A stretch of DNA of 64,000 bases from Carnobacterium pleistocenium FTR1 (GTDB lineage Bacteria > Bacillota > Bacilli > Lactobacillales > Carnobacteriaceae), in the NCBI RefSeq assembly GCF_000744285.1, contig NZ_JQLQ01000002.1, positions 1,426,001 through 1,490,000 of the forward strand, read 5' to 3'. Numbering within the stretch: position 1 is the stretch's first letter; the number at the start of each line of letters is the position of its first letter. Below, piece after piece: positions 8,322 to 61,586 of the stretch. The notes beneath the pieces were generated by a model. The model searched no databases, had not been told where the DNA came from, and saw only the letters and a program-made list of their open reading frames with translations. The position numbers were made by a program, and so were the translations under genes.

Positions 8322-8560
8322 AAAAAAAGTCCTTATTCTGAATAGAATAAGGACGAATGAATTTTCACTATACGTGGTACCACCTTTATTTGAAAGCTAA
8401 GCTTTCCTCAACGATTAACGCTCGTAACGTAGCAGCTTTTCACTGCTAACCCTCAAGAATGTCTTTCAGTTTATTCTACGGGAATTTCTTTCAGCCAAAG
8501 GAAATTCTCTCTATTCACACGCTAGAACTACTTACTTTTTCTTTCATTGGGTATTTCATA
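8322..8560 (-). promoter_or_regulatory. T-box riboswitch leader of hisS-aspS
   Basis: Read on the minus strand the leader contains the T-box sequence AAGGTGGTACCACG (8373-8386), which base pairs with the uncharged tRNA acceptor end. It is followed by an intrinsic terminator with an 11-bp stem (8329-8339 with 8344-8354) and a run of seven T. Upstream lies a long stem I with a distal hairpin. The most likely specifier is GAC (Asp) at 8461-8463, inside GACATTC, followed by a purine as is typical; CAT (His) overlaps it by one base. Uncharged tRNA is expected to favour the antiterminator and read-through into both synthetase genes. The T-box itself is unmistakable; the specifier is inferred. Confidence 0.93.
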
Positions 8561-36539: not shown

Positions 36540-38363
36540 TTACTCGTCATCCATCTTAAGAACAGACATGAACGCCTCTTGCGGAACTTCTACTGATCCG
36601 ACTTGTTTCATTCGTTTCTTACCAGCTTTTTGTTTCTTCAATAGTTTTTGACGACGGGTTACGTCACCACCATAAAGTTTCGCTGTAACGTCTTTACGTA
36701 AAGCTTTGATGTTTGAACGCGCAACGATTTTTTGTCCGATTGCTGCTTGAACAGGAATTTCAAATTGGTGTCTTGGAATAATTGTTTTTAATTGATCAAC
36801 GATTGCTTTTCCTCGGTGGAAAGCAAAGTCTTTATGCACGATAAAGCCTAAAGCATCTACTTTTTCGCCGTTCAATAATATATCCATCTTAGACAAGTTA
36901 CTTTGTTTGTAGCCAATCAATTCATAATCTAAAGAAGCATATCCTTTAGTACTTGATTTTAATTTATCAAAGAAATCATAGACGATTTCTGATAGTGGAA
37001 TTTCATAAACCACGTTTACGCGGTTATCATCAAGGTACGCCATCGTTAAGAAGTCGCCACGTTTGCGTTGTGAAATTTCCATTACAGCTCCGACATAGTC
37101 GTTTGGAACCATGATCGTTGCTTTTACGTAAGGTTCTTCAATCGATTCGATCACACCTGGTTCAGGCATTTCAGCTGGGTTAGCTACGATTTTTTGTGTG
37201 CCATCCGTTAAGTTTGCGTGATAGATAACGGATGGAGCTGTTGTGATCAATTCTAAGTTGAATTCACGCTCAAGGCGCTCTTGAATCACGTCCATGTGTA
37301 ATAGGCCTAAGAATCCACAACGGTACCCAAATCCAAGCGCTTGAGAGGTTTCAGCTTCAAATTGCAGTGCTGCATCGTTTAATTGTAATTTATCTAACGC
37401 GTCTCTTAAATCGCCATAACGAGAAGAATCAATTGGGTACATCCCACAATAGACCATTGGCGTCATTTTACGGTACCCTTTTAATATTTCTGTAGCAGGA
37501 TTATTTGCTAGCGTAATGGTATCTCCAACTCGAGTATCTTGGACAGTTTTGATATTTGCAGTAACGTATCCAACATCCCCAACCATTAGAAATTCGCGTT
37601 TGATTGCTTTAGGTGAAAAGACCCCTACTTCAGCTACTTCAAACGTTTTTCCGTTACTCATCAACTTCATGGTATCTCCAGGTTTGATCATCCCTTCCAT
37701 CACACGAATATTCAATACCACTCCACGATAAGCATCGTAAACTGAATCAAAGATTAACGCTTTTAAAGGATTATCTGTATCGCCTACTGGAGCTGGAATT
37801 TTTTCAACGATTTGTTCTAAGATTTCTTCGATCCCAATACCTGCTTTAGCACTTGCAAAAACAGCTTCACTAGCATCGATCCCGATAACATCTTCTATTT
37901 CCGCACGGACACGTTCTGGATCTGCCGCAGGTAAATCAATTTTATTGATTACAGGTAAGATTTCAAGATCATTATCTAGCGCTAGATAAACGTTCGCTAG
38001 CGTTTGGGCTTCGATACCTTGTGCTGCATCAACAACTAGGATAGCTCCTTCACAGGCTGCTAAACTTCTTGAAACTTCATACGTAAAATCGACGTGTCCT
38101 GGTGTGTCGATTAAATGTAGGGTGTACGTTTCGCCATCTTTTGCAGTATAGTTCAATTCAATTGCATTTAATTTGATCGTAATGCCTCGTTCACGTTCAA
38201 GATCCATTGAATCCAATAACTGTGCTTGCATATCGCGATCAGCAACGGTATTCGTCATTTGCAGGATACGATCGGCCAAAGTTGATTTCCCATGGTCAAT
38301 ATGGGCAATAATAGAAAAGTTTCGAATACGTTTTTGTCTTTCAATTAAGTCATTTTTATTCAT
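36540..38363 (-). CDS. lepA: Elongation factor 4 (LepA)
   Basis: 607 residues, a ribosome-binding translational GTPase that resets or helps assemble translation complexes. G1 [14 protein letters not shown]2 GITIK, G3 DTPGHVDF, G4 NKIDLP and G5 SAKAG are all present, followed by EF-G-like domains and the LepA-specific C-terminal domain ([22 protein letters not shown] region). Length is standard. It has its own promoter; the upstream gene in this direction is dnaJ, with a terminator and repeat copy A between. Confidence 0.98.
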
Positions 38364-38439: not shown

Positions 38440-38479
38440 TAAACTTAGAGGGAACCAGCTTTTAAGGAGATAATTTTTT

Positions 38480-38764
38480 AGTGTTGCTAGATTTAATTCA
38501 ATCACTCACCCAAAAATTCTGAAGGAATAGGATTTGCTTGTAGCCGTGTATTGGATTCAATGCGAATAGCAGCGCATTACCGCTTCAGCGATTACGCGCT
38601 GCTGAGGCTTGAAAACCTTAAGACTGTGGTTTTCAGGCTTCAGGTGGTCCCATGGCTTCACAAGCAAAACCGTTTATTCCATAAGAAATTTTTTTGAAGC
38701 ATCAACACTATTTGTCCTATACCCATTTTTGGTAAGACTTGTCCACACTATTTGACGAAAATCC
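38480..38764. repeat. Dispersed intergenic repeat, copy A (full length)
   Basis: About 285 bp between the dnaJ terminator and the lepA promoter. It starts AGTGTTGCTAGATTTAATTC and ends CACACTATTTGACGAAAATC. Internal marks shared with copy B: GGAATAGGATTT, TGTAGCCGTG, two hairpins (AGCAGCGC/GCGCTGCT at 38568-38603 and GGCTTGAAAACC/GGTTTTCAGGCT at 38606-38639), CCATGGCTTCACAAGCAAAACC, TTATTCCATAAGAAATTTTTTT, and two CACTATTTG boxes 44 bp apart. It contains no coding frame. Confidence 0.88.
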
Positions 38765-38777
38765 CTTTAAGCCAAAA

Positions 38778-38805
38778 GAAAGCCTAAGCTAGTGCTTAGG
38801 CTTTC
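38778..38805 (-). terminator. Terminator of the hrcA-grpE-dnaK-dnaJ operon
   Basis: GAAAGCCTAAGC and GCTTAGGCTTTC form a 12-bp stem with a 4-nt loop; the minus strand continues with TTTT. It lies 26 nt past the dnaJ stop. Confidence 0.88.
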
Positions 38806-38831
38806 TCTATACTTTATTTAAAAAAGTCAGT

Positions 38832-39992
38832 TCATTTCCTTTTCTTATCTGCCTTAAAAGCATCTTTTACTTTATCAAAAATAGAACCATCTTGTTCTTC
38901 AACTTCCATGCCACTAGCTTTAGCAAATTGTCTCAACAAGTCTGTTTGTTCTTTTGATAGATTCTTCGGAGTGACCAATTTAATTTTTATATGTTGATCC
39001 CCAGTGCCTGAACCACGTAATTTTGGTGCTCCTTTGCCTCTCAGACGGAAATTCGTTCCTGTTTGTGTTCCAGCAGGTATTTTTAATTTCACTTTACCAT
39101 GAACAGTCGGAACTTCAACTTCATCCCCTAATGAAGCTTGGACAAAATTAATTGGCAATTCGTAATAAATTTCTGATCCATTTCGTTCAAATTGATTGCT
39201 GGCTTTGACACGGAAAACAACGTATAAATCTCCGTAAGGTCCGCCATTTTTTCCGGCTTCTCCTTGTCCATTTAAGCGCATTTGATTTCCATCTTCAACA
39301 CCTGCAGGGACAGTTACTTTAACTGTATGTTTGTCTTTCGTATGTCCAGAACCATGACATGTTGGACAATGTTCTTTAATTTCTTTACCTGTACCATGAC
39401 AAACATCACAGGTTTGACGAGTCATTACTCGACCCAGTGGTGTATTCCGTTCAACATTTAATGAACCTGTACCATGGCATCGAGAACACGTTACCGGGCT
39501 GGTGCCTGGTTTAGCTCCATCACCGTGACATGTTTTACATTCTTCTTCACGATTGTAACTGACCGTTGTTTCTTTACCAAAAATGGCTTCTTCGAATTCT
39601 AGATTCACTGAGTACTGTAAATCTTCTCCTTGACGAGGAGCATTTGGATTTTGTGAACGACCGCCACCAAAGAATGATTCAAAAATATCTTCAAAGCCAC
39701 CGCCGCCAAAGCCGCCGCCTCCGAAGCCACCGCCGCCATAACCGCCGCCGCCACCTGCTCCAAAGTTTGGATCTGTACTTGCATGACCATATTGATCATA
39801 AGCTGCACGTTTATCCGCATTACTTAATACTTCATAAGCTTCCGCAACTTCTTTAAATTTATCTTCAGACCCAGCTTCTTTATTGATATCTGGATGAAAC
39901 TTCTTTGATAATTTTCTATACGCTCTCTTTATTTCTTCATCAGAAGCACCTTTTGATACGCCTAATACTTCGTATAAATCTCTTTTAGCCAT
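38832..39992 (-). CDS. dnaJ: Chaperone protein DnaJ
   Basis: 386 residues, the class I DnaJ. J-domain at 1-70 with the HPD motif (FHPDINK), Gly/Phe-rich linker of repeated GGGGF units, a zinc-finger domain with four CxxCxGxG repeats ([32 protein letters not shown]), then the C-terminal substrate-binding domains. It stimulates DnaK ATPase and delivers clients. It follows dnaK with 135 nt between and a weak hairpin, in the usual operon. No anomalies. Confidence 0.98.
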
Positions 39993-45374: not shown

Positions 45375-46589
45375 TTACTTATTTTTGATTGCATCCTTTG
45401 GTTTATTAACTTCTGCATGAACTTTTGTTGGCAGACCCCATAATTTAATGAATCCAACAGAAGCTTCTTGATTAAATGTATCTGAAGAAGTGTACGTTGC
45501 TAAATTTTCATCATAAAGTGAATTTGGTGATTTTCTACCTTCCACAATTGCATGTCCTTTAAACAATTTCACCCGTACAGTTCCATTTACATACTTTTGA
45601 GTCGATTTCAAAAAGGCAAGCAAGCTTTCGGTTAATGGGTTATACCATAAACCGTTATAGATCATTTCTGTTATTTTTTGTTCAATAATCGGTTTAAAAT
45701 GAGCTACATCTTTAACAAAAGTCAAATCTTCTAATTCTTTATGAGCTGTCATAAGTGTTACTGCTCCAGGAGCTTCATAAACCTCACGCGATTTGATTCC
45801 GATCAATCTATTTTCGATATGATCGATCCGTCCAACTCCATGCTTGCCAGCAATGCTATTCAGCTGTTGAATCAAATCGGATAACTCATATTTTGACCCA
45901 TCAAGAGCTACCGGGACACCTGCAACAAATTCAATTTCAATCATTTCAGGAGTATCTGGCGTATTTTCTAAACTTGCTGTTAAATCATAAGCTACTTCCG
46001 GTGGTGCGATCCATGGATTTTCTAAAACGCCACATTCATTGCTTCTTCCCCAAAGATTTTGATCAATAGAGAAAGGATTATCTAGATCAATTGGAACTGG
46101 AATAGCATGTTCAATAGCATATTTGATTTCTTCTTCTCTTGACCAAGTCCAATCACGAACAGGTGCAAGTACTTTTAATTGAGGAGCTAAAGAATGGATA
46201 GCTACTTCAAAACGAACTTGATCATTCCCTTTTCCTGTACAACCATGTGCTACCGCTACTGCTTTTTCTTTTATGGCTACTTCAACAAGTTTTTTTGCAA
46301 TCAGTGGACGAGACAACGCTGAAATTAATGGGTATTTACCTTCGTAATACGTATGCGCTTGTAAAGCAACTAATGCAAATTCATTTGCAAATTCTTCTTT
46401 AGCGTCAATCGTATATGAAGCAGAAGCGCCAATTTTTACCGCTTTTTCTTTAATGAACTCTAAGTTTTTTCCTTCTCCAACATCTAAACAACAAGCGATG
46501 ACCTCATACCCTTCATCTATCAACCATTTAATGGATACTGAAGTATCCAATCCTCCTGAGTAAGCTAAAACTACTTTTCCTTTATTCAT
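45375..46589 (-). CDS. argG: Argininosuccinate synthase
   Basis: 404 residues, ATP pyrophosphatase family: [15 protein letters not shown] is the P-loop-like start, then [21 protein letters not shown] and [20 protein letters not shown]. It joins citrulline and aspartate using ATP. Length matches the type I family. It is first in the argGH operon and has ArgR-like half sites upstream. GAGGTG precedes the ATG by a little more than the usual distance. Confidence 0.97.
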
Positions 46590-46832: not shown

Positions 46833-46890
46833 CTAAGATATTCGGTTACTTTTGAATAAATCGTTTAATTCGGGTTTATAATTTTTAAAA

Positions 46891-47160
46891 TTGATAGATT
46901 TAATTCAATTACCTACCTAAAAACACTAGAGGAATAGGATTTTCATGTAGCCGTGCATTGAATTCAATGCGATTAACAACAGCACGTTAACGCACTGTTG
47001 AAGTCTGAAAACCTTAAGACTGTGGTTTTCAGACTTTAAGTGGTCCCCATGGCTTCACAAGCAAAACCGTCTATTCCATAAGAAATTTTTTTGACGTATA
47101 AACACTATTTGTCCTATATCCACTTTTGGTAAGACTCATCCACACTATTTGACTAAGAGC
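46891..47160. repeat. Dispersed intergenic repeat, copy B (full length)
   Basis: About 270 bp. It ends CACACTATTTGACTAAGAGC, 2 bp short of the ribF stop codon. It shares the marks listed for copy A. The second hairpin is perfect here: AGTCTGAAAACC/GGTTTTCAGACT (47002-47013, 47024-47035). A perfect palindrome GCATTGAATTCAATGC is at 46955-46970, imperfect in copy A. The first hairpin CAACAG/CTGTTG differs in sequence from that of copy A but is in the same place. Confidence 0.88.
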
Positions 47161-47162
47161 TT

Positions 47163-48125
47163 TTAATCTTTCGGTGGTAAGTCCTTATTTTTTTCAAAAA
47201 AAGCGGCAGTATCCAATTCATCTTGTTTAAGTTGAGCGACTAAGGCATCAATCGAATCATATTTTTCTTCATCTCGTAAATAATCATACCAAAATACCGT
47301 TACTTCCTCGCCGTAGATATCATCACTGAAATCGAGGATATACACTTCTACTGTTAACGGGCGGTTTGGTTCAAACGTCACATTGTGTCCAATTGAAGCC
47401 ATTCCACTATAGGCTATTCCGCCTACTAAAATTTCAACAACATATACCCCTTTACGAGGCAGTTTAACAAAGTTCTCAATCTCAATATTCGCTGTTGGAA
47501 AGCCTAACAACCTTCCTCTAGCATCTCCATGTACGACTCTTCCAGGAGTAGCATAGGCATAACCTAAGAGATTATTAGCAACAGCCATATCTCCTATTTC
47601 TAAAGCCAAACGAATACGTGACGAACTGATTTTTTCTTCTTGTAATTTTTGTTCTTCTATCACTACTACCTCAAAACGATTGTTGGCGTAGGTTGGTAAA
47701 TGAGCCATCGAAGCGACTTCTTTTTTACCAAAAGTATAATCGAAACCCGCTACAACGGTTTGTGCATGTAATCCAACAATATATTGATCTACAAAATCTT
47801 GTGGATTCAATCCAGCAAATGCAGATGTAAAATCTACTTCATAAAGATAATCAACACCAATTTTCTCCATCAATTGTTCTTTACGAGAAACAGTCGAAAG
47901 ATATTTATGTTGATCAGGATTTAATTTTTTAAAAACGATCGAAGGATGTTGATTAAACGTCATAACAGCTAATTTAAAATTATTTTTATCAGCAATACTT
48001 TTTGCTCTGCCGATTACTTCTCGATGACCTCTGTGTACACCATCAAAAAAACCTAAAGCTAACACTACTTTGTCTTCAGGAATTTCATTTGCTCGATACG
48101 GATGGTGCAGTTTAATGATTTCCAT
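47163..48125 (-). CDS. ribF: Bifunctional riboflavin kinase/FAD synthetase
   Basis: 320 residues. N-terminal FMN adenylyltransferase domain with LGFFDGVHRGH (nucleotidyltransferase HxGH-like), and SSSRIRLALE, then the C-terminal riboflavin kinase domain: GRLLGFPTANIE (FPTAN) and GVYVVEILVGG. Together they turn riboflavin into FMN and FAD. It is 15 nt downstream of truB, the usual truB-ribF order. No internal anomaly. Confidence 0.97.
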   Translation of the reverse strand: MEIIKLHHPYRANEIPEDKVVLALGFFDGVHRGHREVIGRAKSIADKNNFKLAVMTFNQHPSIVFKKLNPDQHKYLSTVSRKEQLMEKIGVDYLYEVDFTSAFAGLNPQDFVDQYIVGLHAQTVVAGFDYTFGKKEVASMAHLPTYANNRFEVVVIEEQKLQEEKISSSRIRLALEIGDMAVANNLLGYAYATPGRVVHGDARGRLLGFPTANIEIENFVKLPRKGVYVVEILVGGIAYSGMASIGHNVTFEPNRPLTVEVYILDFSDDIYGEEVTVFWYDYLRDEEKYDSIDALVAQLKQDELDTAAFFEKNKDLPPKD

Positions 48126-61320: not shown

Positions 61321-61350
61321 GAGAAGCTCCTTTCACTTGCTAAGATACAT

Positions 61351-61379
61351 CTAATATAGTGTTGCTAAATTTAATCCAA
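61351..61379 (-). promoter_or_regulatory. Possible polC promoter built on repeat copy C
   Basis: TTGGAT (complement of 61374-61379, inside the repeat end), 17-bp spacer, TATTAG (complement of 61351-61356, just outside). It points toward polC, 31 nt before the start codon. No other promoter-like sequence is seen closer. Confidence 0.5.
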
Positions 61380-61570
61380 TTACTCACCCAAAAATTCTGG
61401 AGGAATAGGATTTACTTGTAGCCGTTCATTAGATTCAATGCTTCAAATAGATCCCCCATGGCTTCACAAGCAAAACCGTCTATTCTATAAGAAATTTTTT
61501 TGGATTACAAACACTATTTATGATATACCCACTTTTGGTAAAATTCATCCACACCATTTGACGAAGAGCC
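61357..61570. repeat. Dispersed intergenic repeat, copy C (core deleted)
   Basis: About 215 bp between the proS terminator and polC. Both ends match A and B (TAGTGTTGCTAAATTTAATC at one end, CACACCATTTGACGAAGAGC at the other), as do GGAATAGGATTT, TGTAGCCG and CCATGGCTTCACAAGCAAAACC. The roughly 80-bp double-hairpin core is replaced by a short TTCAAATAGATCCC stretch, so this is an internally deleted copy. Confidence 0.85.
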
Positions 61571-61586
61571 AAACTAAACAATTGCA

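What the first reader, a model, noticed from the sequence alone, without database searches (positions are those of the whole stretch)
38560..38640. Compensatory differences in the hairpin core of copies A and B
In the same place both copies carry a hairpin around the loop TTAAGACTGT. Copy A pairs GGCTTGAAAACC with GGTTTTCAGGCT (G-T pairs at two positions), copy B pairs AGTCTGAAAACC with GGTTTTCAGACT (all Watson-Crick). A C-G pair in one is a T-A pair in the other, with both bases changed. The preceding stem (AGCAGCGC versus CAACAG) has changed fully in sequence but still folds. This is what selection on structure, in RNA or in a transposition substrate, would leave.
Basis: partly seen in the sequence, partly recalled or inferred. 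Interest (0 to 1): 0.6.

Follow-up and report, generated by a model that had tools for sequence, protein, structure and literature searches.

The report
Jumping element with conserved RNA fold
The hairpin belongs to a small transposable element, present in dozens of copies in this Carnobacterium genome, whose core keeps the same RNA-like fold in many lactic acid bacteria while its sequence changes; it has the ends of ISL3 transposons, matched no family in the Rfam library, and what the fold does is unknown.

Summary
The hairpin lies in an interspersed element: copies A (38466-38764), B (46872-47160) and a core-deleted C (about 61346-61571). The genome (genus Carnobacterium) gave 41 aligned copies and up to 91 model hits. 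The ends are those of ISL3-family transposons (36 of 37 left-end bases shared with autonomous elements of the same genus); 9 of 31 copies keep an 8-bp target duplication (0.5 expected); four same-genus genomes show the empty site for copy A. So it is an ISL3-type MITE. Its interior folds into a conserved four-helix core. A competing pairing of the same bases, and the neighbouring stem, do covary. The core occurs in 42 of 395 sampled Lactobacillales genomes; in 25 diverse rows, 51 of 55 pairs show two-sided changes. In one genome it sits inside full ISL3 transposons, behind the transposase gene on the same strand. No Rfam 15 family matches. Selection on the fold is well supported; RNA is likelier than DNA but unproven, and its job is unknown.

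The parts
38466..38764 (+). Copy A, whole element from left to right terminal repeat; between dnaJ (38832-39992, -) and lepA (36540-38363, -)
   Evidence: alignment of 41 genomic copies; empty site in same-genus genomes
38512..38691 (+). Structured core of copy A (helices P1-P4)
   Evidence: z -6.45; R1 193.6 bits, but copy A was among the model's training rows
38568..38603 (+). Helix P3 of copy A: AGCAGCGC (38568-38575) with GCGCTGCT (38596-38603)
   Evidence: covarying helix
38606..38639 (+).
   Evidence: present in sequence and in MFE; no excess covariation
38615..38645 (+). Family-conserved hairpin P4 ('b') in copy A: ACCTTAAG with CTTCAGGT, one mismatch in this copy
   Evidence: 24 both-side cells versus 7.2 expected
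46872..47160 (+). Copy B, whole element; between ribF (47163-48125, -) and argG (45375-46589, -)
46919..47088 (+). Structured core of copy B
   Evidence: z -5.11; R1 121 bits, also a training row
47002..47035 (+).
61346..61571 (+). Copy C, a third copy not in the finding; P2-P4 deleted, outer stem kept (core remnant 61390-61497); between proS (-) and polC (-); left end approximate
   Evidence: R1 77.2 bits, not a training row; sequence
38777..38806 (-). Hairpin and T-tract read by eye as the dnaJ terminator, about 10 bp from the right end of copy A
   Evidence: same hairpin at the empty site of G001

Best explanation
Copies A, B and C are non-autonomous ISL3-family transposable elements (MITEs of about 250-300 bp). 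ISL3 transposase supplied in trans recognises their two slightly different terminal repeats, moves them and leaves an 8-bp duplication, in gaps between genes (shown: ends, duplications, empty site; inferred: mobilisation in trans, since this genome has no ISL3 transposase match now). Between the ends each carries a conserved folded module: a long closing stem P1, a short helix P2, hairpins P3 and P4, and conserved unpaired stretches (AUGNGAAUUA, UUUGAAGCU, GAGAC, GGCUC, CGGU, by eye). Selection keeps this fold while replacing the helix sequences (shown by covariation). In one Lactobacillales genome the module lies in full ISL3 elements right after the transposase gene, in sense, so the functional form is most likely an RNA read in the transposase direction, acting in cis for the element (transposase or message binding, or making the insertion tolerable). 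Transcription and the exact job are inference.
For: 41 copies aligned from the own genome; up to 91 distinct R1 hits (92 rows, one a minus-strand duplicate). 8-bp flanks match in 7 or 8 places in 9 of 31 copies with both ends located, against 0.49 expected and at most 5 in 2000 re-pairings. Left 37 bp of copy L036 matches autonomous ISL3 elements of G001 and G005 (same genus) at 36 positions. Of 25 distinct autonomous elements with ends found (G001, G005, G012, G017), 23 have an exact 8-bp duplication. Empty site for copy A in G001, G003, G004, G005. Covariation: 72 both-side cells versus 23.1 within the genome; 419 versus 89.5 in A2; 406 versus 121 with 51 of 55 pairs changed on both sides in A3. 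On a MAFFT alignment of 106 rows, 8 of the 10 best-scoring column pairs of 15753 are among the 62 structure pairs (hypergeometric 2e-18). Core inside ISL3 elements of G103, after the transposase ORF on its strand: 5 of 5 elements searched.
Against: Under a harsh tree-aware null only 2 of 62 pairs pass E<0.05. A2 and A3 were fitted to the model, and the 62 pairs were predicted on the same alignment by a program that rewards covariation, so none of these tests is fully independent. G.U over A.C events (159 to 113) would point to an RNA, but unpaired columns show the same C-to-T bias, so the strand is not settled that way; the reverse strand also folds well (z -6.21). The sense-strand transcript would run against the neighbouring gene in 37 of 41 copies. 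The 1.5-kb ISL3 elements of the same genus that I compared lack the core, and of 63 loci searched only the five of G103 are shown to contain it, so it is not a general ISL3 part. No transcript data.
Confidence: 0.68

Rival explanations
1. The fold matters as DNA: single-stranded or cruciform DNA of the element is what the transposase or a host factor recognises, and no RNA is made.
For: Both strands fold well; compensatory Watson-Crick changes are common; the G.U excess is weak and confounded.
Against: ISL3 transposases are DDE enzymes acting on double-stranded ends (recalled); autonomous 1.5-kb ISL3 elements with the same ends move without the core; conserved unpaired stretches look like those of structured RNAs (by eye); in G103 the core is in sense behind the transposase gene.
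Confidence: 0.18
2. The structured core acts on the host side: as a 3'-UTR, insulator or small RNA that makes insertions behind genes harmless or useful, and this, not mobility, keeps the fold.
For: Right end faces a gene's 3' end in 37 of 41 copies, by simple ORF calls; 22 versus 2 among co-directional gene pairs. Genomes without a PF01610 match keep 88, 41 and 14 cores; in two of them the 6 and 5 sampled cores are 85 and 89% alike while flanks are near the random level.
Against: The insertion at dnaJ-lepA is variable between same-genus genomes; the orientation bias could come from target choice; autonomous ISL3 elements are also often near terminators.
Confidence: 0.2
3. The matching changes in the arms arise by template switching in quasi-palindromes, not by selection.
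For: Hairpin arms such as P3 are sometimes long, perfect and wholly new (L053).
Against: The arms of P2 (50-63 alignment columns apart) and P1 (about 114-186 apart) also covary; unpaired motifs are conserved at the same time.
Confidence: 0.06
4. Two independent insertions of unrelated hairpins.
For: None found.
Against: A and B align over most of the element, 81-92% in three blocks, and with 39 further copies.
Confidence: 0.01

Closest known systems
ISL3-family MITEs and insertion sequences (DDE_Tnp_ISL3, PF01610)
   Same: Asymmetric GG(C/T)T..-type ends, 8-bp duplications, multicopy, no ORF in the MITE
   Different: Carries a covarying four-helix core that the compared ISL3 elements of the same genus lack
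Mobile/repeat sequence candidates such as MRSC-65-2 (PMC11109978, passages read)
   Same: Structured motif in dozens of copies per genome, sometimes near transposase genes, RNA or DNA form undecided
   Different: MRSC-65-2 has over 20,000 representatives in diverse phyla and a UYCCGG repeat; all hits here were in Lactobacillales. Whether this equals one of the other 249 candidates of that class could not be checked
Lacto-int and Transposase-resistance motifs (PMC2864571, passages read)
   Same: Listed there for Lactobacillales and phages, and for several phyla, as ambiguous RNA candidates
   Different: Listed without an Rfam number, so the Rfam search may not cover them; I had no alignment to compare with
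BOX, ERIC, RUP and Correia-type small mobile repeats (recalled; start of the abstract of PMC2229807 seen)
   Same: Short intergenic mobile repeats, some with RNA-like folds
   Different: Other ends and sequences (recalled); not compared here
IS110 bridge RNA and IS200/IS605 omega RNA (recalled)
   Same: Structured noncoding module inside a transposon next to the transposase gene
   Different: Those elements lack the 8-bp duplication and ISL3 ends and use other enzymes; no guide segment was looked for here

Membership tests
ISL3-family MITE | Terminal repeats matching an ISL3 element | tested here: met
   36 of 37 bases at the left end (L036), 22 of 25 at the right end (L018) of the best of 6 copies compared
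ISL3-family MITE | 8-bp target duplication | tested here: met
   9 of 31 copies at 7 or 8 of 8; 23 of 25 autonomous elements exact
ISL3-family MITE | Short, multicopy, no transposase | tested here: met
   41 copies; no ORF of 80 aa or more in A or B
ISL3-family MITE | Empty site in relatives | tested here: met
   copy A only: empty in 4 of 5 same-genus genomes; the fifth (G002) has an independent insertion
ISL3-family MITE | Mobilised by ISL3 transposase | not testable with these tools
   no PF01610 match in the own genome; matches in 11 of 18 family genomes
Any Rfam 15 RNA family | Covariance-model match | tested here: not met
   none over the gathering score in the window copies; best sub-threshold hit on copy A is mir-15, 26.3 bits against 57.3 needed; none on the core in 12 diverse loci at E 0.01
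IS200/IS605 or IS110 with guide RNA | No DDE-type terminal repeats, no 8-bp duplication (recalled) | tested here: not met
Structured RNA (functional) | Covariation beyond chance | tested here: met
   weaker under the tree-aware null, 2 of 62 pairs
Structured RNA (functional) | Transcribed | not testable with these tools
   no expression data

The most novel reading that the evidence does not exclude
The core is a new class of structured RNA that is a working part of a DDE transposon: it acts with the ISL3 transposase (binding it, bridging the ends, or guiding insertion next to terminators), and MITEs keep it for that reason.
Probability: 0.12. Interest if true: 0.92.

Novelty: new variant of a known kind. 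Interest (0 to 1): 0.66.

Why it matters
MITEs are usually described as bare ends with filler (recalled). Here the filler holds a conserved fold found in 20 of 80 sampled Lactobacillales genera, unmatched in Rfam 15, and present inside complete ISL3 elements of one genome right after the transposase gene. That makes a plain question testable: does a DDE transposon use, or carry, a structured RNA? Several genomes give dozens of natural variants to test with.

Tried and rejected
G.U versus A.C polarity as proof of an RNA strand: 108 to 83 cells in the own genome, 159 to 113 events in 106 sequences, but unpaired columns show C-to-T at 0.25 and G-to-A at 0.12, so I do not use it. Derivation of the core from the Carnobacterium ISL3 elements: only the ends match. 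Terminator targeting: a simple scanner found a terminator on some strand within 70 nt in 18 of 26 ISL3 rows (two rows, both negative, are the same element; in L166 the element sits in a MITE core), and in left-in/left-out/right-in/right-out 10/12/6/5 of 31 MITEs, against 28 of 600 random 80-nt windows per strand that include coding sequence: suggestive, not a rule; the low right-in count does not explain the orientation bias. 8-bp duplications for the sampled copies of G187, G083, G310, G062, G378 and G392: no consistent one; their ends are unresolved. Core next to transposases elsewhere: of the 58 non-G103 loci searched (some cut by contig ends), four have a core nearby; in L265 and L280 it lies outside the element by its end sequence, in L276 outside by eye, in L283 undecided. 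No plasmid match for copy A; one partial match (27% of the query) in an Aerococcus record for the G103 core. Literature: eight searches; judged by titles and abstract starts, none of the listed papers is about an ISL3 MITE with a conserved RNA; most subscription papers are not held.

Full report
What is there. The hairpins of copies A and B exist as described. Both lie in one interspersed element. The own genome is in the genus Carnobacterium: G005, placed in the same genus, has the contig lengths of C. jeotgali MS3. A DNA search of the own genome gave 42 rows, one a 39-bp fragment; 41 copies were aligned. A covariance model of the interior found 92 rows in the genome, one of them a minus-strand duplicate and some weak, and a third, core-deleted copy C in the window. 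Gene names are my reading of the translations.

It is a transposable element. The left end (GGNTNTATAATTTTTAGTGT...) and right end (reverse complement GGCTCTAGGTCAAATAGTGTGG...) are asymmetric repeats. In 31 copies with both ends located, 9 have flanking 8-mers that match in 7 or 8 places, against 0.49 expected and at most 5 in 2000 re-pairings; ten copies had no recognisable right end. Autonomous ISL3-family elements of about 1.5 kb in four other genomes of the family have ends of the same type; of 25 distinct ones with ends found (4 of 30 loci fetched had none, one was a duplicate), 23 have an exact 8-bp duplication. The left 37 bases of MITE copy L036 match two of them at 36 positions; the interior gave only short chance-level matches. 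The own genome has no PF01610 match. At the lepA-dnaJ gap four same-genus genomes have the empty site and G002 has an independent insertion of the same orientation. Most simply, copy A arrived after these species split.

The fold. RNAalifold on the interior gave a closing stem P1 and helices P2, P3, P4. Within the genome, 72 cells have both sides of a pair changed against 23.1 in shuffles, 0 of 500 reaching it. In A and B taken alone the MFE contains hairpin 'a', and a crude local classifier called 36 of 41 own copies 'a', so an alternative fold in Carnobacterium copies is quite possible. It is not what the family conserves: at least 75% of 'a' forms in 0 of 36 rows of other genera, of 'b' in 33 of 36.

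Wider evidence. R1 found the core in 13 of 59 genomes searched, the own genome among them. R2, made from the 73-row alignment A2, found it in 42 of 395 genomes of the order, own included, 20 of 80 genera. In 398 genomes sampled from the class it was in 4, all of the same order; the output does not say how many of the 398 lie outside the order. A pattern scan of named genomes hit Carnobacterium, Desemzia, Pisciglobus, Enterococcus aquimarinus, a Tetragenococcus MAG and a Streptococcus. On A2, 49 of 55 pairs have two-sided changes and 419 such cells against 89.5; on A3, 25 diverse rows, 51 of 55 pairs and 406 against 121. Both alignments were fitted to the model. On a MAFFT alignment of 106 non-redundant interiors, 8 of the 10 strongest column pairs of 15753 belong to the 62 pairs of the structure; those pairs were predicted on the same alignment, though the same helices came out of the 41 own copies before. 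A harsh tree-aware null leaves 2 pairs, both in P3, with E below 0.05. By eye, P2 changes from UUCAA/UUGAA to UGCAA/UUGCA in Desemzia and to other pairs in further genera.

Link to complete transposons. Among the other 58 loci of that search none was shown to contain it; four have one nearby. Hence the module can travel in full ISL3 elements but many do without it. MITEs may be deletion products of core-bearing elements, or the G103 element may have picked the core up; the data do not decide.

Placement. With the element read in the model's direction, the gene on its right runs towards it in 37 of 41 copies, and among co-directional neighbours 22 against 2; genes were called as ORFs of 80 aa or more, and the adjacent pair L015/L015b shares its neighbours. 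The three window copies agree. The cause is open: target choice near terminators (copy A sits next to what looks like the dnaJ terminator) or loss of the other orientation.

Persistence without a transposase. G187, G083 and G096 have no PF01610 match but 88, 41 and 14 cores. In G187 and G083 the 6 and 5 sampled cores are 85 and 89% alike while flanks fall to near the random level within 20-40 bases, with only inner remnants of ISL3-like ends by eye. Either the core is kept for its own sake there, or it moves by ends I could not define.

What is known. No Rfam family matches. A published screen (PMC11109978, passages read) has a class of 250 mobile/repeat candidates; its main text has no match for Lactobac-, Enterococc- or Carnobacter-, and supplement look-ups are capped at zero here. 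PMC2864571 (passages) lists a Lacto-int and a Transposase-resistance motif without Rfam numbers, which I could not compare. The passages of PMC9208149 concern ISL3 placement in general, not such an RNA.

Verdict. Ordinary part: an ISL3-type MITE. Unusual part: a strongly covarying core in many Lactobacillales, unmatched in Rfam. RNA is the likelier form; function is not shown.

Noticed in passing
window 61346-61571: Third copy C, with P2-P4 deleted but P1 kept, again with its right end facing a gene's 3' end (proS).
   Followed up: yes
L151-L158 (G001): Several copies stand in same-direction tandem pairs about 240-264 bp apart; by eye the two members of a pair resemble each other closely, as if duplicated or homogenised.
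   Followed up: partly
L166 (G001:C4 near 2442847): An autonomous ISL3 element has inserted into the core of a MITE copy, with an exact 8-bp duplication.
   Followed up: no
G187, G083 (L216-L221, L240-L244, L291-L316): Dozens of cores with ends at the base of the stem, no consistent duplication in those sampled and no PF01610 match in the genome; how they spread is unexplained.
   Followed up: partly
106-row alignment, columns 66 and 120: The second strongest column pair of all is not in the drawn structure (next to P2); may be a shifted or tertiary pair.
   Followed up: no
L184 (G002, lepA-dnaJ gap): Independent insertion of the same element in the same gap and orientation as copy A, but upstream of the dnaJ terminator.
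   Followed up: yes
right end TTTGAC and left end TATAAT of the element: If the ends were joined in a circle they might make a promoter-like -35/-10 pair; not tested.
   Followed up: no
window 8346-8556 (-): T-box leader (Rfam RF00230, 98.7 bits).
   Followed up: no
L245 (G103:C1:400500-405000): One core-bearing ISL3 element is interrupted by another ORF of about 400 aa that looks like a transposase.
   Followed up: no
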